The notes beneath the pieces were generated by a model, which saw only the letters and a program-made list of their open reading frames with translations, had not been told where the DNA came from and did no database searches. The position numbers were made by a program, and so were the translations under genes. A DNA stretch of 64,000 bases from Halorubrum sp. 2020YC2 (GTDB lineage: Archaea > Halobacteriota > Halobacteria > Halobacteriales > Haloferacaceae), in assembly GCF_018623055.1 (NCBI RefSeq), contig NZ_CP076019.1:1488001-1552000 (forward strand), written 5' to 3'. Below, in pieces: positions 7,255-34,164 of the stretch (the first letter of the stretch is position 1; each line of letters starts with the position of its first letter).

Positions 7255-7273
7255 ACTCGAAGAATATTCGGGG

Positions 7274-7284
7274 AATATATAAAG
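7274..7284 (-). promoter_or_regulatory. TATA box of queD-queE-queC operon
   Basis: On the minus strand the sequence reads CTTTATATATTCC, with the box about 25 bases before ATG 7254. This is the archaeal TATA spacing for a leaderless transcript, and it fixes the queD start. Confidence 0.6.
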
Positions 7285-7433
7285 ATTGAGTTTCGTTACT
7301 TCATCGATGGAACAGCAACACCACTCACGATCGTCTCTCCGCCGACTCTCTCGTTGTCTCCCAGTATCCACCCTGGCCGAGCCGCGACACAGCAACGCAC
7401 GCAGTTGTACGATCATAGCCGTGGTGACAGTTG

Positions 7434-17821: not shown

Positions 17822-18532
17822 TCAAGAAAAGTTGTCAATCCCAGATTGAGAATTCGCTGAGGAATCAGTTAGACAGTACTCAGCCGCTTCATTAGGAGTG
17901 ACCGAGTCTTTTGAGCCACAGAGAGCAGCGGAGAAATTCTTGAGGTAAGTCCCTTTCAGACCTACTACTGTTGAGCCAAACTTTTTGCCTTCCTCGGTTC
18001 GTGCAGGTACAGAAATAGCCTGTTCGTATCTCTCTTCCATTCCTTCCTGATTAAACAGGACGACAGTCGTTTCTACCGGCGTGGAACTGAGAAGCCCGTT
18101 AAGATCGATCGTATCGTAATACTTCGCCCCGAGAGCGAGAAAGACGACATCAAAGCCCCCAGTATCAATCAGTTCTCTCAACCGCTGAGTAAGCTGAAAC
18201 CGTTCCTCCCGTTCCGCAATCTCCGCTTGGGACATCGAATTAAACGTGGCTTCGTACGGAGGCAGACGCTGGTCCTCGTTGACGAGTCCGAAGCCCGCAC
18301 TGACGAAGAATCGCTCCACACTGTGACCTTTTGTCGTAAGCGCATGGATTGCCTCCGTGATTCGGCGTTGCTGCTTACCGTCGTACAGGTCCTTCGCTCG
18401 AATCCCCTCGATACCTAAACTCTGTAGGAGGCTCTCCGCATCCTCGTTTTGTGTCTCTTCCTGATCTACAATAGGATGATCTGCTGGGTGAGACTTTGTC
18501 CCAGAGCACTGATCGATAATCAGGATCCGCAT
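17822..18532 (-). CDS. YaaA/DUF6884-like protein next to dpdA (possible DpdC role)
   Basis: A 236-residue protein. It begins 'MRILIIDQCSGTKSHPADHP' (the CSxxK-type start of YaaA/DUF6884 proteins), with 'GIRAKDLYDGKQQRRITEAI' and 'VSAGFGLVNEDQRLPPYEAT' as the conserved 'SAGFGL...PPYE' core. In bacterial Dpd islands a protein recalled to be of the YaaA/DUF328 type (DpdC) follows insertion of preQ0 and hydrates its nitrile to the amide in DNA. Here the gene abuts dpdA with no gap, which supports that role. The identity with DpdC is inference from fold and position, so no symbol is given. Confidence 0.65.
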   Translation of the reverse strand: MRILIIDQCSGTKSHPADHPIVDQEETQNEDAESLLQSLGIEGIRAKDLYDGKQQRRITEAIHALTTKGHSVERFFVSAGFGLVNEDQRLPPYEATFNSMSQAEIAEREERFQLTQRLRELIDTGGFDVVFLALGAKYYDTIDLNGLLSSTPVETTVVLFNQEGMEERYEQAISVPARTEEGKKFGSTVVGLKGTYLKNFSAALCGSKDSVTPNEAAEYCLTDSSANSQSGIDNFS

Positions 18533-20749
18533 TCAGAACTCCTCCAATTGGATCTGTACGTCTCTGCTCGGAGTAAAGTCAGATTCGTATCCCAGCCTCT
18601 GTAGGATCCGGTCCCGGACTCCTTGCGCCTTGTCCACGAACTCGACAGAATCGATATCAAACCGTGTCTCCCCTTCGGGATCGTAATAGAGGACTGTGTC
18701 GTAACGACCGGCCTTTCGTTCAAGTTCTTCTGAGATCCCGATAGGATCGAGAGAGATGCTTGTGGGTCCTGGTTCCGACCACTCATGAACACCATTTGCG
18801 TCAAGAACACCAATTTCCGCGACTGGGACATCATGTACTGCCTCCCAGAGATCTTCGTACCTGTCTGATAGATACTCTTCTACAGTATCTCGACCAAATA
18901 GAGAGCTATCGGCAGGCACAACAACCAGCATCTTCGGCAGATCGTGTTTGAATTTCTGATAGAACCGGTACGTGTTATGGAACCCACGGCGGCGATTTCG
19001 GTTGTTCCCCCGAAATATCGCAACCTCAATACCCAAATCCTCGCAGATCGGGCAATCACACCGATCCCATGGACGGGAACGAAGCGTCTCCCGGTACCCT
19101 TCAAGGAGATCTTCGTCATCGATCAGTTCTGATGTCGCGTAGCTCTCTAACACCGTCCAGATCTGTTTGAACGTCGCTACCTCGCCGGATTTCTCTTCGA
19201 GCGCTTCTACGCGATCGGCAGTTCGTGGGAACTCATCAACGACCTCACGAGCGATACTAATGATGTCTAGGTACTCGTCAAAGTCAGTCGGGTCGTCGGC
19301 GTCATCCGCACGCAGCAACTTTACGAGGCTCTTCCGGACATCATCACTGAAACTCGCCTGTAGTTCGTACCCATGATCGAAATCATCACGGAACTCGGAA
19401 GTGACCTCTCGGAGTAGTCTCGCATCGTATCTTTCATCGTGTCGGTGTTCCTCTAGGTAGTCAACGAGTGTATCAAGCACAAGGTCCGCTTCCGCGTACC
19501 AGCCACGTATCCGACTCGAAATAGAGTCTTCGTCGTCGAAAGCGCGTAACGCATGTAACACCTCTTGACCGAGCATCGACTTTTTGACGGCTATCTCAAG
19601 CGCGTCACCGGGTTTCGCGTACCGAACGCGGATGGCATCGAAACGCTCGTCAGGGTTTAAGTGATAATTGTTTCCGCCTGTCCACGCCGCTCGGAGCATA
19701 CTCGCACTGTCTATCGAAGACATCTGTGCCCGACCGATCGTCTCGAAGCCATCCGTCTTTGCGAATCCGAATACGTGGGTATCGATCCGAGTCTCGTGTT
19801 CTGACTCGAACTCTGTTATTCGGTGCCCTACCTCTGTGACAATTTCCTCTACCTGCTTGAGTTGACTCCCAGCAACACCACCGATGCCGACGTACTGATA
19901 CCCCATCTTCAAGACCTCATCGAGTGCCTCTCCGTATGTAGTCGGATTCCACCCCTGGAACGCAGCCATAAGGCGGAACGACCAGTCTCCGTTTTGGTAC
20001 AGATCTCCCATCTTCCGGGCGTTTTCCAGCGTCATCTCATATCGCTTCCACTTATCATCTTCGCGGTAGACTGCTCGATGATCCTCGTCCATCCGCTGAA
20101 GAATCTCGAGAGTGCTGCCCTCGAAGTCCTCTACAGTGAAGGGGTCAACAGCGTGGAGGTTACAAATCGAAGGTTCACGCTGGGAGACTATGTCGGGCCA
20201 TTCACTCGGCCACTCCTCGATCATAACATCGACTTTGTCTGTGAGTTGTGGTGGAAGATCACTCTCACCGAACTCGGAACGAAAAGCACGCTTGTCTAGG
20301 TAAAGACGCCCCTTCTCTTTACCCGACCCAAGGACGAGATGGTCGATAGTAACCCCGACATCGACATCCATTTTCTCGTAGAAATCCAGCATATTTGCGT
20401 TGCCGTAGGGCGGGAATGGGAGAGATTTGTAACCCCACGCACCGCAGTCACTAATCGTCGGCAGCCAGTTTGGAATGTTGAGTTGAGGATCATTGTAAAC
20501 TCCGTACTCTGTAATACGATCGAACTTTGTCTGGCTGCCTTCAGCCTGTTCACGTGAAACGAGTACACCATCGATTGGAGTCGATTCGTAATCAAAAATA
20601 TCCCAGATGAAGTGCCGTTCCCGCTTTGTCTTGTTCAACGCTGAGTGTTCGTCATGTATATAATCGTAATGGGCGTCGACCGCATCCTCCCATTCGGGAA
20701 CGTAGAACCTCATAGAGAGTTCACTAGCGTTGAGTTTGGCTAAACACAT
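18533..20749 (-). CDS. dpdA: DNA 7-deazaguanine transglycosylase DpdA
   Basis: DpdA exchanges guanine in DNA for preQ0. The 738-residue protein has a TGT-like barrel in its N-terminal half. 'TISDCGAWGYKSLPFPP' (near residue 97-113) corresponds to the TGT DSGGF loop. 'VDVGVTIDHLVLGSG' (near 130-144) and 'GYQYVGIGGVAGSQ' follow. The hallmark 'CDCPICEDLGIEVAIFRGNN' then 'RNRRRGFHNTY' (from ~563) gives the CxCxxC...H zinc site with the RGNNRNRRRGFHN signature that separates DpdA from tRNA enzymes. It is longer than bacterial DpdA, with an inserted helical region (about 370-550) and a C-terminal extension. Neighbours on the same strand are dpdK upstream and the DUF6884-like gene immediately downstream. 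Confidence 0.9.
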   Translation of the reverse strand: MCLAKLNASELSMRFYVPEWEDAVDAHYDYIHDEHSALNKTKRERHFIWDIFDYESTPIDGVLVSREQAEGSQTKFDRITEYGVYNDPQLNIPNWLPTISDCGAWGYKSLPFPPYGNANMLDFYEKMDVDVGVTIDHLVLGSGKEKGRLYLDKRAFRSEFGESDLPPQLTDKVDVMIEEWPSEWPDIVSQREPSICNLHAVDPFTVEDFEGSTLEILQRMDEDHRAVYREDDKWKRYEMTLENARKMGDLYQNGDWSFRLMAAFQGWNPTTYGEALDEVLKMGYQYVGIGGVAGSQLKQVEEIVTEVGHRITEFESEHETRIDTHVFGFAKTDGFETIGRAQMSSIDSASMLRAAWTGGNNYHLNPDERFDAIRVRYAKPGDALEIAVKKSMLGQEVLHALRAFDDEDSISSRIRGWYAEADLVLDTLVDYLEEHRHDERYDARLLREVTSEFRDDFDHGYELQASFSDDVRKSLVKLLRADDADDPTDFDEYLDIISIAREVVDEFPRTADRVEALEEKSGEVATFKQIWTVLESYATSELIDDEDLLEGYRETLRSRPWDRCDCPICEDLGIEVAIFRGNNRNRRRGFHNTYRFYQKFKHDLPKMLVVVPADSSLFGRDTVEEYLSDRYEDLWEAVHDVPVAEIGVLDANGVHEWSEPGPTSISLDPIGISEELERKAGRYDTVLYYDPEGETRFDIDSVEFVDKAQGVRDRILQRLGYESDFTPSRDVQIQLEEF

Positions 20750-20890
20750 TTAGATGTATCTCATCTACCCAGTCCACCATTAGTCGGATTTTCTGATACG
20801 GTATGTTGAAAGTGTGAACTGAATTCAGATGGGCAATATGACCCTTCCTCAATACTTGGTTGGCGGGGGTATCTGATTAGTGTCGTGTAA

Positions 20891-22852
20891 CTATGGTCGG
20901 TACACCTTGGGATAGAACTCGAAGTTCGTCTTCCCGGTATACACCGATTCATCAATTGAATCTGGTTCAGCTAAGTCCCAAATGAGGTCAAAGTAGTCCG
21001 CCGCAGTCTGAATTATCTCAGGATGTCTGGTGTGTAAACCGGCTTCCGGATTGTAGTAGAAGCTATTTTCCATAAGATTAGCACTCCCAACAAGCGCTGC
21101 GCCATTCTCTGGTGTACCAGCGATGAACACCTTTCCATGAATTCCCGTCTCAGATACGGATGAATCGCCCTCACTGTCAGGTTCACTCCGTTTGTGCTTT
21201 CGTAACTGTGTGTGATCTTTGTACTTCTTGTAGCGAGTATATGTCCGTAATTCAAGATTGCCGTGAGTATCCCCAATTCGAGTAAGAAATTCTTGTTTGA
21301 GGTTATTCCATCCACTGGGATCTGGGAGCCGAAATAGAAGTTGAATCTTGATCCCATTTTTAAGTAGTCGATGGAAGAGCGCAGTATATTCCTTAACAAT
21401 GAAATTGAGCCAAGGGGTCATGACTCTTAATCGAGGAGAAACAGATTCATCTTCGAGTGGCCGCGAACAGACTTCTCGCACCGCGTCTACAAATGTAACC
21501 GCATCATGGGGTTGATTCGTTCGCCACTCTTTGATCCGGTCAATTTCTTCCGAGAGGTGCGGACTTTCGCCGATATACTCTTCAATTTCGTAATTATCGG
21601 CGTGGTGAACGGGATCGAACATCGAGAAGACGAACTCAGTGGGCGCGGTGGTGATGTCGTCCAGTCGATCCATTGTTGATGCCAGAAGATCCGCACGTTG
21701 ATCTCTCCATAAATCGTTGAGTCGGCCACCCAGTTGGCGAGCGGCCGTGGAAATAGAGTTTGCGTGGTCCTGTTCATCCTCAACATAGCTTTCGTAAGCG
21801 GCTAGTGCATCAGAGGCTGTTGGTCCAGAATACGGCGTCTCAAATACAAGGAGATCTTCATCCAGCGACACCTGAAAACCTTTATCGCGCAAGTCTCGAT
21901 GGAGTCGGAATTTATCTGTAGTTGTCTCGTTATTAAGCAGCCAATCTACCGCGACAGGGAGTCCGTGGCGGCTTGCTACGGCACAGACCGCAGCTGACCG
22001 GTCGGAGAGGGGCCAACCAGGTGTATCATTTGGTGGCTCCGCCTGGCGGAGGCCTGTGGTTCTCTGAAGTCTTTCAACACGATCAGTCCACTTCCGTTCA
22101 GTCTTCATAAGTACCGCCTCCGCCTCGTCGGCGAACAGTTCGTTAATGAAAGCTTCAACCCGACCGTCACCGGCATACACCGGGAGACTTCCCTGTACAT
22201 TAGTCGGGCCACGATCCGGAACGTCAACATCGAACGCCTTCAGAAGAGGAGGAATGATGGTTTCGATATCCGTCACCCCGTGAGCCTCGCAGATCCGGGC
22301 GAGAATTGCCCAACAGGCTTCAGACTTGGTCAGGCTCCGACTTCCGTGTAGTGTTCGGACAACTTCCCGTGGGATCTCATAGCCATCCTTCGCTGCACGG
22401 AGCGCTCCGAGAGACCGGAGTAAATTAACTGCTTTCTCATCAGCGATCGACTGTACATCCCGCCGTGCCAACACCACTACACCCGTGTTTTTTGTTTCAT
22501 CATCGTACTCCTGAGCGGTCCGCAAAATCCGCATCTCCCCACCTTGGGCCTCGTAGGCTGCCCCGAGGACAAACTGCTGGGCAGTCTCCGGTGTCGCGTG
22601 CTGAGCTAGCAGCCGTATTTGAGATCCAAACCACTCGTCGATAATCGATTCGAGGGCGTCCGTGTACGTTTCCCAATCGACGGCGTGGTTAGTCACGTAC
22701 ACCGTGAGGTCGTAATAATGGCGTAGCGCTTCCCAAGCCGCGTCCGTATCGGTTATCGCCGCATTATTATAAAGCAGGATGCTCTCAGGAGAGACACCCC
22801 AGTAACGGCCAGCAGTGTGCTCCTCAAGAGAATCTGGGAGGTTAGTAGGCAT
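20891..22852 (-). CDS. dpdK: DpdK-like phospholipase D-fold protein with long N-terminal extension
   Basis: A 653-residue protein. The C-terminal third has a PLD active-site motif, 'HGKVFIAGTPENGAALVGSA' and 'NLMENSF' (near 571-597): H-x-K followed by G-S-x-N. Preceding it is the beta-strand pattern 'RVMTPWLNFIVKEYTALFHR', typical of PLD-fold nucleases. Only one HxK copy is visible, as in DpdK and in DrmC of DISARM, which would act as a dimer. The first ~430 residues are helical, have no motif I know, and are absent from the short bacterial DpdK as I recall it. It lies between dpdJ (67-base gap) and dpdA (141-base gap). Predicted role: nuclease of the restriction arm. Confidence 0.75.
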   Translation of the reverse strand: MPTNLPDSLEEHTAGRYWGVSPESILLYNNAAITDTDAAWEALRHYYDLTVYVTNHAVDWETYTDALESIIDEWFGSQIRLLAQHATPETAQQFVLGAAYEAQGGEMRILRTAQEYDDETKNTGVVVLARRDVQSIADEKAVNLLRSLGALRAAKDGYEIPREVVRTLHGSRSLTKSEACWAILARICEAHGVTDIETIIPPLLKAFDVDVPDRGPTNVQGSLPVYAGDGRVEAFINELFADEAEAVLMKTERKWTDRVERLQRTTGLRQAEPPNDTPGWPLSDRSAAVCAVASRHGLPVAVDWLLNNETTTDKFRLHRDLRDKGFQVSLDEDLLVFETPYSGPTASDALAAYESYVEDEQDHANSISTAARQLGGRLNDLWRDQRADLLASTMDRLDDITTAPTEFVFSMFDPVHHADNYEIEEYIGESPHLSEEIDRIKEWRTNQPHDAVTFVDAVREVCSRPLEDESVSPRLRVMTPWLNFIVKEYTALFHRLLKNGIKIQLLFRLPDPSGWNNLKQEFLTRIGDTHGNLELRTYTRYKKYKDHTQLRKHKRSEPDSEGDSSVSETGIHGKVFIAGTPENGAALVGSANLMENSFYYNPEAGLHTRHPEIIQTAADYFDLIWDLAEPDSIDESVYTGKTNFEFYPKVYRP

Positions 22853-22919
22853 ATGTGAGTGAAAGCGGAGAGATTCACTTGAAACCGAGGATCAGTTCGA
22901 CCGCGGTAGTGCGAACGAG

Positions 22920-25900
22920 TCAGTCGTCGGCGACGAGTTGGATGTCTTCAGGCGCAGCCGACAGGTCGTCGATGACAGCTAGCATGTCCTGCTTATTGAA
23001 CGTACGTTCGTCGTTCCGTTCATCACAGCCATACTGGTAGATACACTCGGGACAGCCAGCGGCGCAGGAACACTGGCTAATGTTCTCTTTCATCACTTCA
23101 AGAGCGTCATCAAGCTCGGGAAGCGTAGATTCCGAGCGGTCGAATAGTAGCTTCGTCACGCCGTTGCCACCGATAGTCCCCTCGAAAATGAACGCCTCGT
23201 TGTCGCCATCGCTGTACGATTCGTTGAGCTGCCGAATTTCGATCCCGCCGATGCGTTGGAGTGCCAAGCGGAAACCATGGACCAGCGTGTGTAGTGTGTC
23301 GGGAGAGACCCGTGGACTGACCGATTTTACGCGGATACCCTTGGTCTGGAACGTCCGCCCGACCATTACATCCTGTTGAGCGGACTGGTCATGTTGCGGA
23401 TCCCGGAGGCAGACCTGGTCCTTGTCGTTCTGCTGAACGACTACGCTATTACAGTGACTCTCCCGACAGAGTGTGAGCGGCTGGTCCCCCGGATCCTGAG
23501 TCCCACCGCTATAGGAAGTGGTGAATGAGTCAACGGTCTCGATAATTTCTAGGCTGCCATGCTCTAGAGTCACCAACGTATCTCCCGCTGCGGTTTTTAG
23601 TTCTAGGCGCTGCTGGGGGGCGAATTCCTCGACGACCGTCTCAATGTTAGCGTACGTGCTCTGAGGACTCGTGTGGTAGTCCGCCAGTGGATAAATCTCG
23701 TTCGCACGGGCGGGCTCAAACTGGCGGGCTTTGTCCGAGAGTTCGACTCGCTTGAGCGAGATCGGTTCGATTGTCCGGATGTCGTCCGTCTCGCCACACT
23801 CAGGACAGCCGCCCTGGCCTTCGTAGACACCTTCGAAACCGCAGTTCGCACAGATCAATTGCTTGTCTCCCAATCGCTTCTTTAGCTCTCGGGTTCCCTC
23901 GGTGTCTTCATGAACTCTGGTAGCAACGTACCCGCGCTTGCTCTTCAGACTGTACGCGTAGGGGTGCATCTCGCGTAACGCCATTGCTTCACCACGATCC
24001 CAGTTCGAATCCTCTGTCGCGCGTGTCTCACCACTCTGGGAGTCATATTCGTGCCGCGTGACGGAGACGCTGTTGCCAAACGCCCGCATCTGGGGAACAA
24101 ACGCGGACTGAGCGGAGCGCTGATGGACATCAGCGAGGTTAGCATCTTTATAATCTTTAAGTAAATCTTCGAGCGTCCGGAGCTGAGACCGAATACGGTC
24201 AAGGTCCCGCTCGGCATCCTGCGAATCATCTTCATCGCTATCGTCTTCCCAGCCCCAATCGTCGCTGCTATCCTCAACAATTTCTCGGGCCTTGGATTTC
24301 TCTTCTTCGAGCCGTCCAATTTCGTCCTCGATTCCGACCTTGTAATCGCGGGCGAAGGTTACCAACCGCTCATCGAACTGCTCGATCGCTTCGTCGATTA
24401 ACTCTCTGAACTCTGCTCGGGCGACACTGAGTTCTTCAGTACTCTCGCAGTTGGAGCAGCTCCCTCCGACGTTCGAATCGTACATGTGCCCGCACTGCCG
24501 ACAGTAGGCGTAATCCAGAAGATCTTCGAGCCATACACGGACTCCTTCATCTTGTGTGGCGATGGCTCCGAGGACGGCCATACACTTTCCGTCACTCACC
24601 TCCTGGATGTTTCGGTAGTAGATACTCGTGAAAATCTCAAATTCGTCGGGTGCCTGATCGCGGGGAGAATCCTTCTTATATCGGTTCCACTCGCTCGGGT
24701 CAGGTGCCTTGATTTTTGTCCCCTCAATCTGATCCAATTTCTCCCAAGGAACGGCGTAGTAAGCGGCAATATAGTCCATAATTGCCCACGTGAGCGCGGA
24801 CTTGAGGACGTGCTCATTGTGCGGGTTCAGTGGGATCGGTTTCTCCTCGGACTCGATGAGTTCGTCTGGACGTTTATGATAGTAGAAATCGATGGGGTTG
24901 CGCTTGCTGATCGTCGTCACCAACGACTTGCCGCTGGAGCGGCCCGCCCGGCCGATTCGCTGTAGGTACGCGTTCGTGTTCGGAGGGGTACCTAACAAGA
25001 GCAGACTGTTCAGATCGCCGATGTCGATACCGATCTCCATCGCTGGCCCCGTTGAGAGGAAATTCGGCGTGGCGTTACGCTTGAACTCATGCTCGATGCG
25101 ACGCCGCTCATCTGCTGGTAAGTCCCCTTTGTATACCTGACTGAGCAGCATCCGGGTATCAGTGCCGGTTGCCCAGTAGGCCGTCCGCGTGAAATGCGGC
25201 GAAGAGAGGTCAGCACGATCTTCGTAGGAGTCTGTAAAGTCAATAGATTGACTGTAATCTTTCTCAGACGTAACCTCAGCCCTTAGATCACTGATGAACT
25301 CATCGACTTCGTGTAGATAACGGATTGGTTGATCATCATCCACATACCGAACTTCGACCGTCTCCGGAGTAAACGAAACGCGATCACTCTGGTCCTCGAT
25401 CCTGATGATCCCCCGCTCCTCCAGTTCGCTAATCGTCTCTGTTGGGCTGTCAATCCCCTCGTTGTCACGGAGAGATTCGATGAGTTGTTCCTGATCTCGG
25501 CGGTTCCCATCGAGGAGTTCTTGACAGACGGCTTGTTCTGCTGGCGTCTCCGGGCGATCGACAAGCCCGACGTTCAGGAGACCGTCGCTAACGAGTCGGC
25601 CGTATTCGCGGCCAAAGTCTCCATTGAACAGACGATAACTTCCGCCGATAAGCTGACCGGTGATCGTGTGACGCCACTCGATATACCCGATGATATCGTT
25701 GATTATGTCTTCCTTGTTATCGAACTCGTCCCAGTAGTCGCGTGCCCGCTGAGTCGTCTCGTTAATGACTTCTTCTAGTGTCGCCCGTCGCTCATCAGCC
25801 ATGTACGACAGCAGCACCTGCTGGATGAATAGCAACCGCTCGGGTTCGTCGAAGTCGTTGGCAAGCCGTTCCATATCCCGGTAGGAATCGGCAAAAGACA

Positions 25901-28529
25901 TGAGTTTGGCCTGTCGTTGAGTCGCTGATTTCGCGTCGGCCAGTTCCCGGAGCATAAACTGGCTCATCGTCACGCCCGTGTTGATGGGTGACCGCATCAG
26001 CGTATCGTAATTCCGGTACCGGTGATAACAGGGAACGGCGTGTTTTCCCTTCGATGGGGTGCTCAATCGCACGTTTCCGCTTGAATCAAGGTACGCGACC
26101 CGGAGATTGAATGATTTTTGAACCCGATCAACGGCGTCGTCGTCATGGATTGCACACCCAGTTCCAGGGAGGTAGTACACGTCCGACCTGTCGGCGTTAC
26201 ACTCGGTACAGTAGTCGGCTTCTTGCGTGTCGAAATATCCTGCGAGGACAAACGTACTAGTACCGCAGTCACACCCGCCTTCTGGTAGTGCGGATCCGTG
26301 GTTTGCGCCGTGATCGCTATTCGCACAGATCCAAGGGAGGGTAAGTTTCGGCACCAAGTGGCTGTCACAGTCTCCACAGGTGAGACCCTCCTGAGTTTCT
26401 CCGTGCCGTGAACAGTCGGGATTGGAACACTCAGAAGAGAGATCATCATCCAGTTTCAGCTCTCCACCGCAGTGGTGGCAGTTGCTACCTGACCGGTCGA
26501 CGGTGGCACCGCAATCGGGATTCTTACAGACGACGCCCTCCCCAGTCCTAGTCAGTTGACCACCACACTGTTGGCAGGCCCCAAGCGCCTCAGATGGACG
26601 GGCCTCTCGACCACAGTCCATACATTCGTACTCCGGCGTCCAGTAGACACGAGTTAGTGTTCCGTGATTCTCGTGAGCGCACTCCGGCTCATCGGCGTAA
26701 AGATACTCACCTTCCGTTTCTTGAGTAACCGGACGGACGTCACCGCAATCCGGACAATACCACCCCTCGTACGCCTGTTCGCCACACTTGTTACAGAGCC
26801 GAATCTTGGTGACAAACCGAGTGTGCTCACCTTGTGACTCACCACAGTCACATGACTGCGGTTTTGCGTAGATGCGATGACAGTGAAGACACTTGTAGTA
26901 GCCGTCGACAGGCCAATTGAACACGTGAATTCGCACCTCAAATCCGGCGAGCTCGAACAGATTCAGTGCGTTCTGTGCGACTCGTTGGGCGGTTTCTCTA
27001 TCCGTCACGGAGTCGTAGGTGGTCTGAACATACTCGACGAAGTCCTCAAATCTCGGCGCGTCAGGTAGTTCGTACGCATCGTCGCTTGGCTTCTGGAGCG
27101 CTTGATGGAGATGAACGAGACAGCCAAGCGATCCCTCTTTAGCGGCCTTCTCAAGAACTGTACCAGGTCCGCGGCCGTATTGTGGATCGACGTCCAGACT
27201 TTTCAGCCACCCGTGTGTCTGGGGATCTTCACCGTCTCGCCAGCGACTGAGATCATTCTCTACTGTTTGACTGTCAAGTCCCGCAGTCCTGAGGAACTCT
27301 GGAAGTTCTCCGGGCGGTGTCCGATCAGTGCCACTATTCTCTTCATCGAAATCAACCTGTTCTTCGATAACTCTATACGGGTCACCCCGACGGATACCGA
27401 GGAGTCGTTGGAATAACTCCTCCTTCTGTCCGACCGTTGCGCTCGCAGCAATGATCCGGAGGGGATTGTCGACGCCACGTGCCTCTCGGAGTTTCCGGAG
27501 GCGTTTGACCAGCATCGATGTATGGGCACCAAACAGACTATTGTAGGTGTGGACCTCGTCAAATACCAGAAACTTCGGCTGGTCGACGAAGAGCCGGTGA
27601 GCCTGCCTGTCATTGATATTGAACAGCCGGTAGTTGATCGCGTCAGGGTTCGTCAGTAGGATGTCCGGCTGTTCGTCCTCGATACGGTCACGGGTAAGGT
27701 GGACGAATCGAAGAAATTCTCCCCCGTATCCTCCACGCGTTTTGAGGTAGTACTCCTGTCCGTCCTTTTTGACGTGTAGGTTCGGTGCTTCGTTTTCTCT
27801 GATCGCGTCACTCTCCGCGAGCCCGTCAGCGATACGCTCAGGAAGCTCGAAGTATTCGAAAGAGTCTTCCAGATATTTGTGCGTACTCTTGCCATCCTGT
27901 CGGCGGCCGCGTCTCGGTGTATCACCGTCGTAGACGCCGATAGTGATATACTCATCCTCGGCGAGGCTTGACTTCCGGTTGACGAACCAAAGATACTCTA
28001 TGAACCGCTTGAGTTGGTCTTGGGCGAGGGCTTTCGTCGGATATGTAAGCAGGGCCTTGATGCTGTCGGGAGATACGTCGTCGATGCGGTTACGTTTCGC
28101 CCGGAGGATGTACTGGAGGAGAGGAATGAACCACGCTTCGGTCTTGCCGCGTCCCGTTCCGGCGGCGATAAGGGCGTGGTTGTCGTTTGCGAGCCACTCG
28201 ATGGCTTCCTCTTGGTGGACCTGGAGGTTCTCGAAACCTTCGGCCTCGAAAGCATCGATGAGCGGTTTCTCCAGACCGTTCGGCGCGAATTCACCCTCAA
28301 CCTGCTCTGCGAAATCTTCCCACGACGTGTCGCTCCAAGCCGCCGACGCAACACCTTGGAGATATGGGCCTTTCGAGCGAATGAAAGCCTGTTCGACGCT
28401 CTCATCGTCGTCGTGAGAAAAGTTCTCCAGTAGACCTTGATAGCCACGCTGATTGTTTCCAATTAGGTAGTTTGCGTAATTCTTCTGGGCGTGGGTTCCA
28501 AGCTCGATCGGATTGAACTCGTCAGACAT
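22920..28529 (-). CDS. dpdJ: DpdJ-like giant DEAD/DEAH-box helicase with zinc ribbons and DUF1998-type C-terminus
   Basis: A 1869-residue SF2 helicase. 'LQVHQEEAIEWL' is followed by motif I 'AGTGRGKTEAW' (residues ~123-133). Motif II 'VFDEVHTYNS' lies near 325, motif III 'ASATVG' follows, and motif VI 'QRIGRAGRSSG' lies near 1193. Residues ~543-790 hold many CxxC/CxxH pairs, at least six zinc ribbons, inserted between the helicase lobes. Another CxxC pair lies near 1355. The C-terminus 'CSCAAGCPECIYQYGCDERN' (~1818) is the DUF1998-type cysteine cluster. DrmA/DrmB of DISARM have related parts. It shares its boundary base with the gene before it, so they are translationally coupled. Predicted ATP-driven DNA translocase of the restriction arm. 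Confidence 0.85.
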   Translation of the reverse strand: MSDEFNPIELGTHAQKNYANYLIGNNQRGYQGLLENFSHDDDESVEQAFIRSKGPYLQGVASAAWSDTSWEDFAEQVEGEFAPNGLEKPLIDAFEAEGFENLQVHQEEAIEWLANDNHALIAAGTGRGKTEAWFIPLLQYILRAKRNRIDDVSPDSIKALLTYPTKALAQDQLKRFIEYLWFVNRKSSLAEDEYITIGVYDGDTPRRGRRQDGKSTHKYLEDSFEYFELPERIADGLAESDAIRENEAPNLHVKKDGQEYYLKTRGGYGGEFLRFVHLTRDRIEDEQPDILLTNPDAINYRLFNINDRQAHRLFVDQPKFLVFDEVHTYNSLFGAHTSMLVKRLRKLREARGVDNPLRIIAASATVGQKEELFQRLLGIRRGDPYRVIEEQVDFDEENSGTDRTPPGELPEFLRTAGLDSQTVENDLSRWRDGEDPQTHGWLKSLDVDPQYGRGPGTVLEKAAKEGSLGCLVHLHQALQKPSDDAYELPDAPRFEDFVEYVQTTYDSVTDRETAQRVAQNALNLFELAGFEVRIHVFNWPVDGYYKCLHCHRIYAKPQSCDCGESQGEHTRFVTKIRLCNKCGEQAYEGWYCPDCGDVRPVTQETEGEYLYADEPECAHENHGTLTRVYWTPEYECMDCGREARPSEALGACQQCGGQLTRTGEGVVCKNPDCGATVDRSGSNCHHCGGELKLDDDLSSECSNPDCSRHGETQEGLTCGDCDSHLVPKLTLPWICANSDHGANHGSALPEGGCDCGTSTFVLAGYFDTQEADYCTECNADRSDVYYLPGTGCAIHDDDAVDRVQKSFNLRVAYLDSSGNVRLSTPSKGKHAVPCYHRYRNYDTLMRSPINTGVTMSQFMLRELADAKSATQRQAKLMSFADSYRDMERLANDFDEPERLLFIQQVLLSYMADERRATLEEVINETTQRARDYWDEFDNKEDIINDIIGYIEWRHTITGQLIGGSYRLFNGDFGREYGRLVSDGLLNVGLVDRPETPAEQAVCQELLDGNRRDQEQLIESLRDNEGIDSPTETISELEERGIIRIEDQSDRVSFTPETVEVRYVDDDQPIRYLHEVDEFISDLRAEVTSEKDYSQSIDFTDSYEDRADLSSPHFTRTAYWATGTDTRMLLSQVYKGDLPADERRRIEHEFKRNATPNFLSTGPAMEIGIDIGDLNSLLLLGTPPNTNAYLQRIGRAGRSSGKSLVTTISKRNPIDFYYHKRPDELIESEEKPIPLNPHNEHVLKSALTWAIMDYIAAYYAVPWEKLDQIEGTKIKAPDPSEWNRYKKDSPRDQAPDEFEIFTSIYYRNIQEVSDGKCMAVLGAIATQDEGVRVWLEDLLDYAYCRQCGHMYDSNVGGSCSNCESTEELSVARAEFRELIDEAIEQFDERLVTFARDYKVGIEDEIGRLEEEKSKAREIVEDSSDDWGWEDDSDEDDSQDAERDLDRIRSQLRTLEDLLKDYKDANLADVHQRSAQSAFVPQMRAFGNSVSVTRHEYDSQSGETRATEDSNWDRGEAMALREMHPYAYSLKSKRGYVATRVHEDTEGTRELKKRLGDKQLICANCGFEGVYEGQGGCPECGETDDIRTIEPISLKRVELSDKARQFEPARANEIYPLADYHTSPQSTYANIETVVEEFAPQQRLELKTAAGDTLVTLEHGSLEIIETVDSFTTSYSGGTQDPGDQPLTLCRESHCNSVVVQQNDKDQVCLRDPQHDQSAQQDVMVGRTFQTKGIRVKSVSPRVSPDTLHTLVHGFRLALQRIGGIEIRQLNESYSDGDNEAFIFEGTIGGNGVTKLLFDRSESTLPELDDALEVMKENISQCSCAAGCPECIYQYGCDERNDERTFNKQDMLAVIDDLSAAPEDIQLVADD

Positions 28530-29299
28530 TATGTGTCCTCCTTGAATTGAATCGTGAGTAATTGGCTGAATTGTGGGAGATTTTTCAGATCGTTGAGGAC
28601 GTCCTCGTCGATCTCTCCGAGTGTGACCTGCGTATTGTTCAGAAGCTTCTTGAGCTCGGACATCGCATCATCCCCGATATCGTACTCGTCCTGCACTACA
28701 TCAAAGCTAATCTCGATGTCATCGTACTGTTCGGCCAACTCATTATATCGGGCTGCGGGCACCTGATGTAGAGTTCCGCCTCTGTGATCCCGTAAGAACT
28801 GCTGGAATTCCTCGATAAGCTGTTCATCCTCTTCGGACCCGACGTCAGGGATTCGCAACACCGTCCGTTTTGTCGCCAACTCGTCGAGGAGTTCGTCAGA
28901 CCGCGTTTCGATCTTGTGTTGAATATCGGCTTGTTGGTTGTCAATCTCGGCGCTGTAGTCTTCGAAGTCGGCTTCTAGATCCCGAATCTCTTGGTCGTCC
29001 TCGAAGCCGTCGAAGTCTGTCTCGGTGACGGTCCGGAGCGTTGTTGTCATCTTTCTTTTGAGTTGATCGGTAGCGTTAGCATCGTACGCCACTCCCATCG
29101 CGTCCGCTAGCGACCGCCACTTGCGAAATGTCTCATATTCACTCTGAACATCTTCGATCTTTGACCGGAGGCTTTGGAACGCGTTGTTCTTGCGTTCAGC
29201 CTCTTTTCGCCGCTCGTTAGTTTTCTCGGCTTTCTCCGCGAGGTCGCTTGCTTCCCCGCGGTGCTCTTCGATTTTCGAAATTTGGTTAAGCACCGTCAT
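28529..29299 (-). CDS. Coiled-coil protein in the dpdI position
   Basis: A 256-residue, highly charged protein. The first ~70 residues ('KIEEHRGEASDLAEKAEKTN' onward) and ~95-130 ('DLEADFEDYSAEIDNQQADI') have strong heptad character. The C-terminal ~100 residues are mixed. No catalytic motif is seen. It overlaps the ATPase gene before it by 4 bases (ATGA) and meets dpdJ at one base, so it is made together with both. In Dpd islands the gene between dpdH and dpdJ is dpdI. I assign only the position, since I cannot confirm the family from sequence. Confidence 0.65.
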   Translation of the reverse strand: MTVLNQISKIEEHRGEASDLAEKAEKTNERRKEAERKNNAFQSLRSKIEDVQSEYETFRKWRSLADAMGVAYDANATDQLKRKMTTTLRTVTETDFDGFEDDQEIRDLEADFEDYSAEIDNQQADIQHKIETRSDELLDELATKRTVLRIPDVGSEEDEQLIEEFQQFLRDHRGGTLHQVPAARYNELAEQYDDIEISFDVVQDEYDIGDDAMSELKKLLNNTQVTLGEIDEDVLNDLKNLPQFSQLLTIQFKEDT

Positions 29300-32200
29300 T
29301 GGGACACCTCCAGATCGTCGAGAAAGTCAGACGCTACCTGCTGACAATTTACGAACGGCTGAGTATCGATATTTATTTCAATCTCCTGTTGAAGTTCGGT
29401 GATGCGTGCTAAAAGTTCACCGTCGAGTTCTTTCAGATCGTCGCGGAACGATTTTAGAAGTTTGAATTGGTCTCTGAATGAACCGTATTTTAGCTGAGCG
29501 ACATCATAGTACACACTGAGAAAGTCCCACATTGAGTATGACTCTTCGAGCCGTTCGGTGATATCATCTATTCGTTCGAGTGCCTTGTCGTACTCTTCAC
29601 GTTCATCCTCATCCAACTCTTTGAGGGTCTTTACTGACTCTGGTGGATACCTGCTTGGTAGACTATCGTACGCATTCTCCACAGTCAAGAGGTCGATATC
29701 ACTCGGTGAGTCGGCAGATTCGTAGAAACGCTTGAGCTCAGTGAAGTTTCCCATGAGGCCATTGAGCGTTTCCTCATACTCATTTTCTCTAGCATACTCG
29801 TGAAGCGAGCGACCGGTCGATCGGAATCCGAAATGCGATGGCTGTGTGAGGAATTCCTTTAGATCAATTGTCTCTTTTCGGGTCGGACCGATTTTGAATC
29901 CAAGTATGCCGGCAGACATTCCCTTGACTGCACTACAGAGTTCGTTGGGTGATGTCGCCTTCACGTGTGATTCGAGGCGTTCGTAATCGACCATGTTCGC
30001 CCGCAGGTGGAATCGGGCATGGAAGAGCCCCAGTAGTGACTCACCATACGTATCGAATCCACTCATGTCGACGTCTAGGTCACTAGGTTTTGCAGTGACT
30101 GCGAACCGATTCATATCAACAGGCTCGGCAAGGGCCTCTGCCGAGAATTCCGCACCGTTGCCTGTAAAGATATTCAGGAGATACTTTCCGAAGAGTGCTA
30201 TCTGATCGATATCGGCTCCGAATTCCTCTTTGATGTCTCTCTCAAGATTCGTCCGGAATTCGGAGACAGCCCCCTCAGCCCATGTGCGAAGACTTTGTGC
30301 GTCTACTGCTCCGTTCTGGACGTGCTCTTCGACCGTGGTTTCGTCGTATATACCGATCCGAAGCAGGTCCTTCAGGAGCGATTCAGGTAGCTCTGGACCG
30401 ATGACGACCTTCCGGTAGGAGGGACTATCCCCATTGTCGATGTGAATCGGGACTTTGCGACTTCCTTTGGTCCAGCGTAAGACGGCGGCGTCACTGGACC
30501 GGCACTCCGGCCTAACCAAGCTCTCCGGTTGGTCGTAAAAGAACCGAATTGCCTGCTCAGCGCCATCCTCAATATGTGAGGTTTTATTGAACGTGGCACC
30601 TTCACCTCGCCAGTCAAGCAAGTCTTGTAGGCGGTTTTCGAACAGTTCTCGTTTGCCCCCAATGGGTTTCTGGTGAGACGAATCAGATGTACAGACCCAG
30701 AACTCCTCGCGTTGCTCCATTGGGGAACCACAGTCGTCGCAAGTCGTGTCACAGTTACGGCAAACGAGCGCACCGCTCTCGGTCTCCTCTAGAGGGGCGC
30801 TACATTCTGGACAAAATTCCGTGTCTGAAGTCGTAAGGGGAATGGTGCCATCGCTCCCGACGCCGAATGTTTCTGGAATACGAGGGTCCACGCGCTGTAC
30901 CCCGGCTTCGGAATCTTCCACCCCGTACCATTTCAGGACGTTCCGATCGAGGCCTTGGTGGTCGGCGGTGATCATACACCGGACTTTCCCTAGCGTGTCC
31001 AGGAGTTCCGCGTGCTGAAATGGCGGCTTATCGTTGTCGAGGAGCCCCTCTAGAACGAACTTCAGGTAGACGCGGGGTGTCTGCTTTCGCTGCTCATCTT
31101 CTTGGAGATTCTCATAGATCCGCGTGAGGAATCGTTCGTTAAACGGGTATAGGTCCTCACCAAAGACATCGTCAATCTCTTTTTCCGAGATGCTGGGCAT
31201 AGGTGAGAACTCACAGTTTGAATCTTCCTTAATCGCCACGAGATACGTCCGTGCAAGATCAACGTGGACGTTCTCTTGTTCGAGGAACAGGGTCTTCGAA
31301 CCGTCATCGGTTTGCTCGGTCAGCGTAACCCGGGCAGAGATACGGTCGTTGATAGTATCTTGGGAGGCAACATCGGCGCGCCGCCCTTCCACCAACTTCT
31401 GCTCCATGCCAGTGGTCACGCCAATGACGACGTCCCAGTTAGACGCCCCCAGATCAGAGAAGAACGAGAGAATTTCGTGTTGGAAGATCGTGAAGCCGGT
31501 GAGATCTTCGATGATGAGAACGGGCCTCTCTTCGCGCTCCTGGAATCTTTCGTTAATTTGGCGGAGTGTCTCTTTAATGTCCCCGACGTACAGCATATCC
31601 TTGATAGCGTCTTTGGCCTGTCGGGTAATGATGTCAAACAGTTCTTCCTCCGGAGAGGCTCTCTGGTTACCATACTCGTTTCTAGCCCCCGGATACTGGT
31701 CGAACAATTCGGATAGTTTCTCCTCGGAGATCGGCTCGAACTCCAACTCAGACTCCGGGTCGTCAAAGGAGTCAACGTACTCTTCGAGGTTCTCACGAAT
31801 CGTCTCGCGGAACTCGTCATCCTTGACGAGTTGGACGACAGGATCGCCCTTTTCGAAGGCGACCGTGATTGTGCCGATCGTCTTCTCGAATACACCGCTT
31901 GGCGGAAGGTTGGCCAACTGCTTCGCTTCATCCAGATTTGCGTCGTCAAGGTAGTCAGCGAGCCGGCCGAGAACCTCCCGTGGTTCACGAACCTGCCGTG
32001 GAATGTGGATTGGAACGTGTGTGAAATCTCCGCCGCTTACCTCAGATCGGTCTTGAAGTTCGTACTGTAGCCATTGGCACAGCTCCGACTTCCCGCTCCC
32101 AGACTCACCCACCACAAAGAACATTCGGTTGTCAGCTTTGAGATCCGACGATACAACCCCATCACGGAAGGTTTCTTCGTCGATGTATTCGTCATCAAAA

Positions 32201-32361
32201 CCGGGAACGCTGTTGTTTCGGGTGACCTTGATCCGACGAATTGGGACGTGAGTTTTCTCGAAGTGTTCACGGGACTTCTGTTGAGACTCCTGTGTGAGAT
32301 ACGTCTGTACGGCATCATGTGTCCAGTTTTTGGGATAACGAATGCTGCTCGTCTCACTCAT
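29296..32361 (-). CDS. dpdH: DpdH-like P-loop ATPase
   Basis: A 1021-residue ATPase. Walker A 'VVGESGSGKSELCQW' lies at ~83-97 and Walker B 'RPVLIIEDLTGF' at ~279-290. The sensor-like 'SNWDVVIGVTTGMEQ' follows at ~310, in the arrangement of STAND/AAA-type ATPases. A zinc-ribbon pair ('CPECSAPL', 'CRNCDTTCDDCG', about 512-545) follows. The C-terminal 450 residues are helical, with a coiled-coil-like stretch near 900-960. Length and position (after dpdG, before the dpdI-position gene) match DpdH. It overlaps both neighbours. Likely role: nucleotide-controlled assembly or DNA remodelling in the restriction complex. Confidence 0.75.
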   Translation of the reverse strand: MSETSSIRYPKNWTHDAVQTYLTQESQQKSREHFEKTHVPIRRIKVTRNNSVPGFDDEYIDEETFRDGVVSSDLKADNRMFFVVGESGSGKSELCQWLQYELQDRSEVSGGDFTHVPIHIPRQVREPREVLGRLADYLDDANLDEAKQLANLPPSGVFEKTIGTITVAFEKGDPVVQLVKDDEFRETIRENLEEYVDSFDDPESELEFEPISEEKLSELFDQYPGARNEYGNQRASPEEELFDIITRQAKDAIKDMLYVGDIKETLRQINERFQEREERPVLIIEDLTGFTIFQHEILSFFSDLGASNWDVVIGVTTGMEQKLVEGRRADVASQDTINDRISARVTLTEQTDDGSKTLFLEQENVHVDLARTYLVAIKEDSNCEFSPMPSISEKEIDDVFGEDLYPFNERFLTRIYENLQEDEQRKQTPRVYLKFVLEGLLDNDKPPFQHAELLDTLGKVRCMITADHQGLDRNVLKWYGVEDSEAGVQRVDPRIPETFGVGSDGTIPLTTSDTEFCPECSAPLEETESGALVCRNCDTTCDDCGSPMEQREEFWVCTSDSSHQKPIGGKRELFENRLQDLLDWRGEGATFNKTSHIEDGAEQAIRFFYDQPESLVRPECRSSDAAVLRWTKGSRKVPIHIDNGDSPSYRKVVIGPELPESLLKDLLRIGIYDETTVEEHVQNGAVDAQSLRTWAEGAVSEFRTNLERDIKEEFGADIDQIALFGKYLLNIFTGNGAEFSAEALAEPVDMNRFAVTAKPSDLDVDMSGFDTYGESLLGLFHARFHLRANMVDYERLESHVKATSPNELCSAVKGMSAGILGFKIGPTRKETIDLKEFLTQPSHFGFRSTGRSLHEYARENEYEETLNGLMGNFTELKRFYESADSPSDIDLLTVENAYDSLPSRYPPESVKTLKELDEDEREEYDKALERIDDITERLEESYSMWDFLSVYYDVAQLKYGSFRDQFKLLKSFRDDLKELDGELLARITELQQEIEINIDTQPFVNCQQVASDFLDDLEVSQ

Positions 32362-33118
32362 TACTCATTACCTCGATCGCGCTGTAACCAGTGCCGTCGA
32401 TATCAACACTCTGTCCGATATCACTGACTGTCCGAAGTTGGACGTCATTCGATTCTTTGAGCGATAACAGCGTCCGTTCGAAATACGGTGCTATCTCCAT
32501 CCCGTCGCCGATAACTGGAAGATAGTCCTCATCGATATCTGTCAAAACAGTGGCCAGCGGCGCTGTCCTGTTTTCAGTCACGTCGACTAACACCCGTAGT
32601 GTAAGGCTCCGGTTAGGGCCGAACATCGTCGTCATCTCGTCGCCATACACCTCCTTGGTGACCCCGATTTCCTCCATCACCCGGGCCCAGTACCGGAGTT
32701 TTTGTTCGTTCCAGTTAGCGGACGGGACGCGATCACTCATTTCGTCGATGAGTTCCCCACTCCTGTCAGCCAGCACAGCAGACTGCTCTGCGAGACATTC
32801 CAAGACATCATTGTAGGCACTCTCTTCGCCATCCGCGGTTCGGATACCGTGTAGTAAACTGAGGTGGGCGTCGTCAAACTCGACGGCGGTCTCCGTCAGT
32901 TCGTACCCTGTGTCGGAGTGCTGTATTTGATTGCTTTCAGCGAGGAATTCAATGGCGTCTTGAATTGGCTTTCGCTGATCTGACGTTTGTGGATCAGATA
33001 CATCTCCCGGGAAATACAACTCAACCACTTCGTCTTTTGTAATAGGGGCTTCGTCGGAGATTGTCTTTCTGATTGCAAACAGGTCTCCTCCCGTAACATT
33101 TCGCGTGAGAATTGGCAT
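32354..33118 (-). CDS. dpdG: DpdG-like winged-helix protein, first gene of the dpd operon
   Basis: A 254-residue protein. The N-terminal ~100 residues read as one or two winged helices ('TRNVTGGDLFAIRKTISDEA', 'QDAIEFLAESNQIQHSDTGY'). A helical middle and an alpha/beta C-terminus follow. It overlaps dpdH by 8 bases. Length, HTH character and its place at the head of G-H-I-J-K fit DpdG, but the identification is mostly by synteny. Its upstream region (33119-33260) is AT-rich and should hold the operon promoter. DpdG might be the DNA-reading or regulatory subunit. Confidence 0.6.
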   Translation of the reverse strand: MPILTRNVTGGDLFAIRKTISDEAPITKDEVVELYFPGDVSDPQTSDQRKPIQDAIEFLAESNQIQHSDTGYELTETAVEFDDAHLSLLHGIRTADGEESAYNDVLECLAEQSAVLADRSGELIDEMSDRVPSANWNEQKLRYWARVMEEIGVTKEVYGDEMTTMFGPNRSLTLRVLVDVTENRTAPLATVLTDIDEDYLPVIGDGMEIAPYFERTLLSLKESNDVQLRTVSDIGQSVDIDGTGYSAIEVMSNE

Positions 33119-34147: not shown

Positions 34148-34164
34148 AGTAGGCCCTTGATTGC

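What the first reader, a model, noticed from the sequence alone, without database searches (positions are those of the whole stretch)
17822..33118. Archaeal Dpd island (7-deazaguanine DNA modification and restriction) with G-H-I-J-K-A-(C-like) order
Seen: one minus-strand series with overlaps or short gaps. It runs winged-helix protein, 1021-residue ATPase, coiled-coil protein, 1869-residue DEAH helicase with zinc ribbons and DUF1998-like end, PLD protein, DpdA with the RGNNRNRRRGFHN signature, and YaaA/DUF6884-like protein. Known: bacterial dpdA-K islands insert preQ0/ADG in DNA and restrict unmodified DNA. Canonical DpdB, DpdD, DpdE and DpdF are not recognisable here, so the archaeal system is a reduced or re-assembled form.
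Basis: partly seen in the sequence, partly recalled or inferred. Interest (0 to 1): 0.8.

Follow-up and report, generated by a model that had tools for sequence, protein, structure and literature searches.

The report
Two-TGT archaeal DNA deazaguanine restriction island
A salt-loving archaeon carries a gene island that probably swaps guanines in its own DNA for a queuosine-type base and attacks DNA without the mark; islands of this class were named BRIGADE in 2025, and here we find that its DNA-marking half always comes with a second guanine-exchange enzyme, which never occurs together with the usual helper protein DpdB.

Summary
The reading is confirmed: a minus-strand operon in a haloarchaeal chromosome encodes DpdA (270 bits, cutoff 200), a DUF6884/YaaA-type DpdC relative, and DpdG- and DpdH-related proteins. 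It is not a canonical Dpd island. The "DpdJ" is a Druantia/ARMADA-type YprA helicase (DruE 156 bits, DpdJ 116; DpdJ cutoff 800 missed). I has no detectable DpdI homology, K is only weakly DpdK-like, and DpdB is absent from the genome. The class was named BRIGADE in a 2025 preprint (PMC12458937). This copy has one YprA helicase instead of the usual two.

At 5.2-12.7 kb lie queC/E/D and a second TGT (344 aa, both catalytic Asp kept) with a 295-aa partner and a BrxD-like ATPase. The second TGT occurs in exactly the 19 of 170 related genomes that have DpdA. In 50 DpdA genomes of other phyla a second TGT occurs in 26 and DpdB in 6, never together. Best explanation: a 7-deazaguanine DNA restriction-modification system in which a second TGT plus ATPase takes DpdB's place. 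The gene upstream of G is frameshifted, so activity in this strain is uncertain. No chemistry was testable.

The parts
5233..5922 (-). queC, preQ0 synthase
   Evidence: Pfam QueC 246 bits; only full-length queC in this genome
6017..6793 (-). queE, 7-carboxy-7-deazaguanine synthase (radical SAM)
   Evidence: Pfam Radical_SAM 64 bits; next to queD/queC and travels with dpdA in relatives
6793..7416 (-). queD, 6-carboxytetrahydropterin synthase
   Evidence: Pfam PTPS 74 bits
8341..9375 (+). second TGT (T2, 344 aa), catalytic domain only, no PUA or other tRNA-binding part
   Evidence: Pfam TGT 99 bits; PDB ArcTGT 1iq8 E=3e-20 with catalytic Asp and Zn ligands aligned; orthologue in exactly the 19 DpdA genomes
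9372..10259 (+). 295-aa protein of unknown fold, always follows the second TGT in haloarchaea
   Evidence: found beside T2 in 22 haloarchaeal loci; no family match
10256..11413 (+). BrxC/BrxD-like AAA ATPase
   Evidence: Pfam BrxC_BrxD 60 bits, cut-off 22; conserved after the 295-aa gene
11475..12710 (+). 411-aa protein with a PD...ExK...Q signature, possible nuclease; facultative member
   Evidence: homologues beside dpdA in cyanobacterial Dpd loci; invariant P64 D65 E92 K94 Q109; fold search uninformative
12905..15484 (-). SF1 (Upf1/Dna2-type) helicase; fused to the next protein in relatives; facultative
   Evidence: Pfam AAA_11/AAA_12, PADLOC MkoA 106 bits, fusion of 1476-1539 aa in other islands
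15532..17694 (-). PD-(D/E)xK (Cas4/RecB-like) nuclease; facultative
   Evidence: Pfam PDDEXK_1 24.7 bits; all 9 strong homologues in 170 genomes lie in genomes with this or the sister island, P=5e-7
17822..18532 (-). DpdC relative (DUF6884, YaaA-like), likely converts preQ0 in DNA
   Evidence: Pfam DUF6884 33 bits, PADLOC DpdC, profile match to bacterial DpdC-position proteins, fused to DpdA in relatives, AF2 model nearest PDB YaaA 5caj
18533..20749 (-). DpdA, DNA-guanine transglycosylase (likely start 20713)
   Evidence: NCBIfam DpdA 270 bits > 200; 7ui4 E=1e-42; catalytic Asp and C-x-C-x2-C...H Zn ligands invariant
20891..22852 (-). PLD-family nuclease with a 450-aa N-terminal extension (DpdK position)
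   Evidence: Pfam PLDc_2 32.5 bits; hhalign with DpdK 82%, E=1e-5 over 453-629
22920..28529 (-). YprA-family helicase with zinc modules, BRIGADE/Druantia type (DpdJ position)
   Evidence: PADLOC DruE 156 bits against DpdJ 116; NCBIfam DpdJ 106 < 800; own clade with two relatives
28529..29299 (-). coiled-coil protein in the DpdI position, orthologous across haloarchaeal islands
   Evidence: 18 haloarchaeal loci; no match to bacterial DpdI
29296..32361 (-). DpdH-related ATPase with zinc finger
   Evidence: NCBIfam DpdH 56 bits; hhalign 100% E=7e-47; strong homologue in 15 genomes, all DpdA+
32354..33118 (-). DpdG-related winged-helix protein
   Evidence: hhalign with DpdG 98.4% E=6e-15
33264..34150 (-). 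conserved first gene of the restriction operon, frameshifted in this genome
   Evidence: 290-aa orthologues align across two frames with a break near 33870

Best explanation
This is a haloarchaeal restriction-modification island of the Dpd-related BRIGADE class, in a single-helicase form. QueD, QueE and QueC supply preQ0. DpdA, working with a second TGT, a 295-aa protein and a BrxD-like ATPase, exchanges guanine for preQ0 at chosen places in host DNA, and the YaaA-like DpdC relative then acts on the nitrile (dADG or a related product). The G-H-I-YprA-PLD proteins recognise DNA without the mark and degrade it, with an optional Cas4-like nuclease/SF1 helicase as a further effector. In DpdB-less systems the second TGT with its ATPase does the job that DpdB does elsewhere, either by forming a mixed TGT dimer with DpdA or by giving it ATP-driven access to DNA. 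Shown: gene content, catalytic residues, fusions, co-occurrence, exclusion of DpdB. Inferred: the DNA product, the target sites, restriction of unmarked DNA, physical partnership of the two TGTs.
For: DpdA is above the curated cut-off and keeps every catalytic residue. The DUF6884/DpdC part is fused to the C-terminus of DpdA in most haloarchaea and to its N-terminus in cyanobacteria and Bacillota, and its model is nearest E. coli YaaA. Orthologues of the second TGT occur in exactly the 19 of 170 family genomes with DpdA, P=1e-25 with genomes taken as independent, even where the two genes lie on different contigs or 20 kb apart. Both TGTs keep both catalytic Asp. H and the full-length YprA occur in the same 15 genomes, all DpdA+. 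In 50 DpdA genomes of other phyla: second TGT in 26, DpdB above cut-off in 6, both in 0 (P=0.008). 0 of 26 haloarchaea have DpdB. A DndB-like DGQHR-type protein sits in 14 cyanobacterial DpdA loci that lack the second TGT. queC/E/D lie beside dpdA or T2 in most islands. Against same-genus G110 in synteny, the modification genes are 84-98% identical but G-H-I-J-K only 27-54%, the pattern of a swapped restriction cassette.
Against: No chemistry was tested; no paper read here reports deazaguanine in chromosomal DNA of a haloarchaeon. The gene upstream of G is frameshifted, so this copy may be damaged. The second TGT is not one clade across phyla: haloarchaeal, cyanobacterial/other and Bacillota/Chloroflexota forms branch apart, so 'the same partner' may mean repeated recruitment with different roles. 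Exclusion of DpdB rests on related genomes and partly on contig fragments. I has no DpdI homology, and K's N-terminal 450 aa is unexplained.
Confidence: 0.66

Rival explanations
1. The second TGT is a separate enzyme of the island, writing a second mark (another base or another site, in DNA or RNA) on its own, and is not the functional replacement of DpdB.
For: It keeps all catalytic residues and, in haloarchaea, the zinc site. It sits in its own operon on the opposite strand with its own ATPase. Its nearest solved relative is tRNA ArcTGT.
Against: Perfect presence/absence match with DpdA; no PUA or other tRNA-binding part (344 aa against 582 aa for 1iq8); outside the tRNA-TGT clade in the tree; mutual exclusion with DpdB.
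Confidence: 0.25
2. The restriction half attacks modified foreign DNA (type IV-like, for example haloviruses with dPreQ1 or dG+ DNA), and the island's own modification serves something else.
For: A halovirus with dPreQ1 DNA is known (HVTV-1, PMC6884629). Restriction modules are exchanged between islands with different TGTs.
Against: G, H and the PLD protein are homologues or counterparts of the bacterial genes associated with restriction of unmodified DNA; H/YprA in this form never occur without a TGT module in the 170 genomes.
Confidence: 0.1
3. In this particular genome the restriction half is decaying and only the modification half works.
For: Frameshift in the conserved first gene. Four DpdA+ relatives (G066, G102, G115, G127) live without H and full-length YprA.
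Against: G, H, I, YprA, K and DpdA are all full length and open; a single frameshift can be a sequencing error.
Confidence: 0.25
4. It is simply a canonical bacterial-type Dpd island.
For: Order G-H-I-J-K and homologues of A, C, G and H.
Against: No DpdB, no recognisable DpdD or DpdE, helicase closer to DruE than DpdJ, extra obligate TGT/ATPase module.
Confidence: 0.04

Closest known systems
BRIGADE (Bell et al. 2025 preprint, PMC12458937)
   Same: Halophilic archaea; 7-deazaguanine gene cluster; ARMADA/Druantia-type YprA helicase; PLD and PD-(D/E)xK nucleases; components shared with Dpd.
   Different: One YprA helicase here, not the usual two. Its clade (window, G110, G164) lies outside both tandem copies of the two-helicase islands. 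The held main text of the preprint never mentions TGTs; its supplement could not be read.
Bacterial Dpd (dpdA-K; Salmonella Montevideo type)
   Same: DpdA (PDB 7ui4, E=1e-42), DpdC-, DpdG- and DpdH-related proteins, PLD protein, gene order G-H-I-J-K.
   Different: No DpdB, DpdD or DpdE; YprA helicase of another branch; DpdI unrelated by sequence; second TGT and BrxD-like ATPase added.
DpdB-less Dpd clusters of Bacillota and cyanobacteria (e.g. Paenibacillus sp. 37 pART37, Nostoc sp. NIES-3756)
   Same: DpdA with fused DUF6884 domain, second TGT, no DpdB; Paenibacillus also has G, H, J and K.
   Different: Second TGT of another lineage; no 295-aa protein or BrxD-like ATPase beside it; DUF6884 at the N-terminus of DpdA.
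BREX-Related Capture (BRC) systems (PMC12839542)
   Same: TGT combined with BREX-type ATPases; its authors propose an NTPase in place of DpdB.
   Different: BRC has PglZ, DUF6079, DUF4007 and HerA; none was seen in the window's island.
TgtA/ArcS tRNA archaeosine pathway
   Same: TGT plus a YaaA-like domain acting on preQ0; second TGT is TgtA-like (141 bits).
   Different: Below the TgtA cut-off (350), no PUA domain, outside the tRNA-TGT clade.

Membership tests
Dpd | DpdA DNA transglycosylase | tested here: met
   NCBIfam NF041059 269.7 bits > 200; catalytic and Zn residues invariant
Dpd | DpdB (DGQHR protein) for preQ0 insertion | tested here: not met
   NF041060: no match in this genome or 25 other haloarchaea; positive control Enterobacter 477 bits
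Dpd | DpdC (YaaA-like) | tested here: met
   PADLOC DpdC 33 bits; hhalign 100% to proteins in the DpdC position; YaaA top fold hit
Dpd | DpdJ helicase | tested here: not met
   NF041067 106 bits against cut-off 800; DruE scores higher
Dpd | DpdH and DpdG | tested here: inconclusive
   Homologous by profile-profile, but H is below the DpdH equivalog cut-off (56 < 450) and G has no direct NCBIfam match
Dpd | DpdK PLD protein | tested here: inconclusive
   hhalign 82% E=1e-5, PLD domain only
Dpd | DpdI, DpdD, DpdE, DpdF | tested here: not met
   I: no match to bacterial DpdI; D, E: no window hit. The only DpdF-like hit is a RecQ-type helicase at 53625, outside the island
Dpd | 7-deazaguanine in DNA and restriction of unmodified DNA | not testable with these tools
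   needs LC-MS and transformation assays
BRIGADE | Halophilic archaeon | tested here: met
   closest named matches to DpdA are all Halobacteria plasmids
BRIGADE | ARMADA/Druantia-type YprA helicase | tested here: met
   DruE profile match continuous over 102-618, 156 bits; DpdJ match stops at 397
BRIGADE | Usually two YprA helicases | tested here: not met
   one in the window; tandem pairs in Natronococcus, G026, G090, G114, G135, G159, G165
BRIGADE | 7-deazaguanine cluster and PLD or PD-(D/E)xK nuclease | tested here: met
   queC/E/D, DpdA, T2, PLD and PDDEXK_1
TgtA (tRNA archaeosine TGT), for the second TGT | TgtA equivalog score and tRNA-binding domains | tested here: not met
   140.7 bits against 350; only 344 aa; separate from the tRNA clade
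TGT superfamily, for the second TGT | Two catalytic Asp | tested here: met
   D85 and D236 invariant in 22 sequences; TIGR00449 68.9 > 47.6

The most novel reading that the evidence does not exclude
DNA deazaguanylation without DpdB is carried out by a pair of different TGT enzymes, DpdA and a second TGT, acting as one machine (possibly a mixed dimer, as with QTRT1/QTRT2 in tRNA). The second TGT has been recruited more than once as the alternative to DGQHR-type DpdB/DndB proteins, and in haloarchaea it comes with a BrxD-like ATPase. A sister island kind (BRIGADE Type I-like) dispenses with DpdA altogether and uses a TgtA-like and an ArcS-like TGT.
Probability: 0.4. Interest if true: 0.75.

Novelty: new variant of a known kind. 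Interest (0 to 1): 0.55.

Why it matters
The role of DpdB is unclear, and DpdB is said to be dispensable in some Dpd clusters (PMC12839542 citing Yuan 2018 and Gedara 2023). The exclusion pattern here gives a concrete answer to test: in clusters without DpdB a second TGT stands in. BRIGADE islands are named but, by their authors' own words, not characterised in detail; this analysis supplies a parts list, defines the modification module, and points to named strains with complete compact clusters (Natronococcus sp. CG52, Haloferax alexandrinus BNX82, Haloarcula sinaiiensis) for LC-MS and gene deletion. It would also place 7-deazaguanine DNA marking in chromosomes and plasmids of Halobacteria, where a virus with such DNA (HVTV-1) is already known.

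Tried and rejected
Rejected: canonical Dpd (DpdB, DpdJ and DpdI tests fail); second TGT as the housekeeping TgtA (this genome has a separate 519-aa tRNA-TGT-type gene at 844 kb); second TGT as one clade across phyla (tree needs three origins or deep splits). DpdA and the sister T413 islands never co-occur in 170 genomes, but this is not significant (P=0.10).
Full report
OBSERVATION. The 738-aa protein is DpdA: 269.7 bits against the NCBIfam cut-off of 200, E = 1e-42 to the solved S. Montevideo enzyme 7ui4, and in a 12-sequence alignment from Proteobacteria, Bacillota, cyanobacteria and Halobacteria both catalytic aspartates and the Cys3His zinc ligands are invariant. Orthologues start 12 codons later. 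The window lies at 1.488-1.552 Mb of a 3.06-Mb single-contig haloarchaeal chromosome.

WHAT THE OTHER GENES ARE. Direct family searches gave only weak hits for H and J and none for G, I and K. Profiles from haloarchaeal loci against profiles of annotated bacterial Dpd proteins settled most of this: G matches DpdG (98.4%, E=6e-15), H matches DpdH (100%, E=7e-47), and the 236-aa protein matches proteins in the DpdC position (100%, E=3e-59). K's last 180 residues match DpdK weakly (82%, E=1e-5), and I matches nothing. The 1869-aa helicase aligns with DpdJ as a YprA-family relative but scores higher with Druantia DruE (156.5 against 116 bits). Its DruE match runs on through residue 618, while the DpdJ match ends at 397, after the first RecA domain. 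A genuine DpdJ scores 1731 bits with the NCBIfam model; this one scores 106. The AF2 model of the 236-aa protein (pLDDT 86) has E. coli YaaA as its best PDB match (E=9e-4, modest TM 0.47).

Six kilobases downstream lie queC, queE and queD, and on the plus strand a 344-aa TGT, a 295-aa protein, a BrxC/D-like AAA ATPase and a 411-aa protein. The TGT is below the TgtA cut-off (141 against 350 bits), lacks the tRNA-binding part of ArcTGT, and keeps both catalytic Asp and the zinc ligands. In 170 genomes of the family DpdA occurs in 19, and high-scoring orthologues of this second TGT (over 500 bits; the next best, tRNA-type, score about 108) occur in exactly the same 19 (P=1e-25 treating genomes as independent). 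The partner genes follow it in all sampled loci, and in named plasmids the order DpdA-(DUF6884)-TGT-295 aa-BrxD is contiguous (Natronococcus, Haloferax). The DUF6884 domain is fused to the C-terminus of DpdA in most haloarchaea (967 aa) and to the N-terminus in cyanobacteria and Bacillota, strong evidence for joint action. H and the full-length YprA occur in the same 15 genomes, all DpdA+; K in 10, all DpdA+.

THE SECOND TGT AND DpdB. In bacterial records the picture splits. Clusters of Agrobacterium, Caulobacter, Skermanella, Sinorhizobium and Enterobacter carry DpdB and no second TGT; Paenibacillus, Nostoc and Picosynechococcus carry a second TGT and no DpdB. A scan of 84,980 species genomes gave 80 diverse DpdA loci. 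In 50 of these genomes searched whole, I count a second TGT in 26 (separate ORF, over 140 bits with the second-TGT profile), DpdB above cut-off in 6, and both in none (hypergeometric P=0.008, with relatedness ignored). Fourteen cyanobacterial loci without a second TGT carry a DndB-like protein instead. None of 26 haloarchaea has DpdB. Caveat: the second TGTs do not form one clade. Haloarchaeal, cyanobacterial/other and Bacillota/Chloroflexota forms branch apart, all outside the tRNA TGTs. Repeated recruitment, or very old divergence, is therefore likely, and functional equivalence is an inference.

KNOWN SYSTEM. Bell et al. 2025 (PMC12458937) describe BRIGADE: Dpd/ARMADA hybrids found only in halophilic archaea, with a 7-deazaguanine cluster, PLD or PD-(D/E)xK nucleases and usually two YprA helicases. 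The window fits except for the number of helicases: it has one. In a tree of these helicases the window groups with G110 and G164 in a clade outside both tandem copies of the two-helicase islands. The tandem copies are only 36-37% identical to each other, so I do not assign a BRIGADE type firmly.

MECHANISM. From established knowledge of the families, QueD/E/C make preQ0, DpdA-type enzymes exchange it for guanine in DNA, and DpdC-type proteins hydrolyse the nitrile. I infer that here the second TGT with its ATPase supplies what DpdB supplies elsewhere, and that G-H-I-YprA-PLD destroy unmarked DNA. Cassette behaviour supports a modification/restriction split: against same-genus G110, in synteny, que genes, second TGT, 295-aa protein, ATPase, DUF6884 and DpdA are 84-98% identical, while G, H, I, YprA and K are 27-54% identical, between flanks of 77-95%. 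The nuclease/SF1-helicase pair downstream is an optional add-on: all nine strong homologues sit in genomes with this or the sister island, and the two proteins are fused in others.

LIMITS. The first gene of the restriction operon is frameshifted near 33870, so restriction may be lost in this strain. Co-occurrence statistics ignore phylogeny. Nothing about the DNA product was testable. I could not read the original Dpd papers, so the claim that the DpdB/second-TGT exclusion is unreported covers only the open papers searched.

Noticed in passing
L074/L075 (G123), L076 (G065), L078/L221 (G080), L222/L223 (G162), L224/L225 (G073): A sister haloarchaeal island without DpdA: DpdG/H homologues, one DruE-like and one DpdJ-like YprA helicase (BRIGADE Type I pattern), PLD protein, nuclease-helicase fusion, plus a 413-aa TgtA-like TGT with a small DUF6884 protein and a 673-aa TGT-DUF5591 (ArcS-like) protein. 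The 413-aa TGT is in 18 of 170 genomes, none of them a DpdA genome.
   Followed up: partly
Genome coordinates 1461095-1487714 (left of the window), against queC at window 5233-5922: Seven truncated copies (80-328 bp, 79-91% identical) of the 3' end of queC, all starting at or within 4 bp of the queC end, in both orientations; looks like repeated insertion at the queC 3' end. No integrase was looked for beyond six large ORFs.
   Followed up: partly
window 33264-34150: Conserved gene upstream of G (280-340 aa in relatives, no family match) is frameshifted in this genome.
   Followed up: yes
window 11475-12710; L120:4444-5601, L109:13037-14218, L095:6335-7486, L124:20889-22037: The 411-aa protein has distant homologues in cyanobacterial and other Dpd loci and an invariant PD...ExK...Q pattern, so it may be a nuclease shared by Dpd systems of two domains of life.
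   Followed up: partly
L091, L095, L098, L099, L101, L103, L105, L106, L107, L109, L110, L111, L114, L136: Cyanobacterial DpdA loci carry a DndB-like protein (over 500 bits to the Allocoleopsis one, not matched by the DpdB model) where others have DpdB or a second TGT.
   Followed up: partly
L032:15954-19361 (G127) and homologues in G115, G066; L039:11745-16591 (G164): DpdA islands without G-H-I-YprA carry a different candidate effector set: a 1136-aa AAA/coiled-coil protein, a DpdJ-like 929-aa helicase and a 690-710-aa MZB-domain protein.
   Followed up: partly
L142, L143, L144: Asgard archaeal contigs (Thorarchaeota L142, Lokiarchaeota L144) and an unnamed archaeal MAG (L143) carry a short DpdA with a divergently oriented DpdC-like gene next to it.
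   Followed up: no
G195 (L128), G199 (L133), G205 (L140): Three genomes with DpdB carry two DpdA genes: a long DUF6884-fused one and a separate one beside DpdB, so the long form may always have a second TGT-fold partner.
   Followed up: no
G066:C20:30431-30631 and neighbouring BrxD fragment: A decayed second-TGT/BrxD-like copy beside dpdA, while an intact copy 96% identical to the window's lies elsewhere on the same contig: apparent replacement of the partner module.
   Followed up: no
Genome coordinates 1476902-1484555: Metallophosphatase, Rad50/SMC-like, NurA and HerA-like genes in a row just left of the window, among the queC fragments.
   Followed up: no
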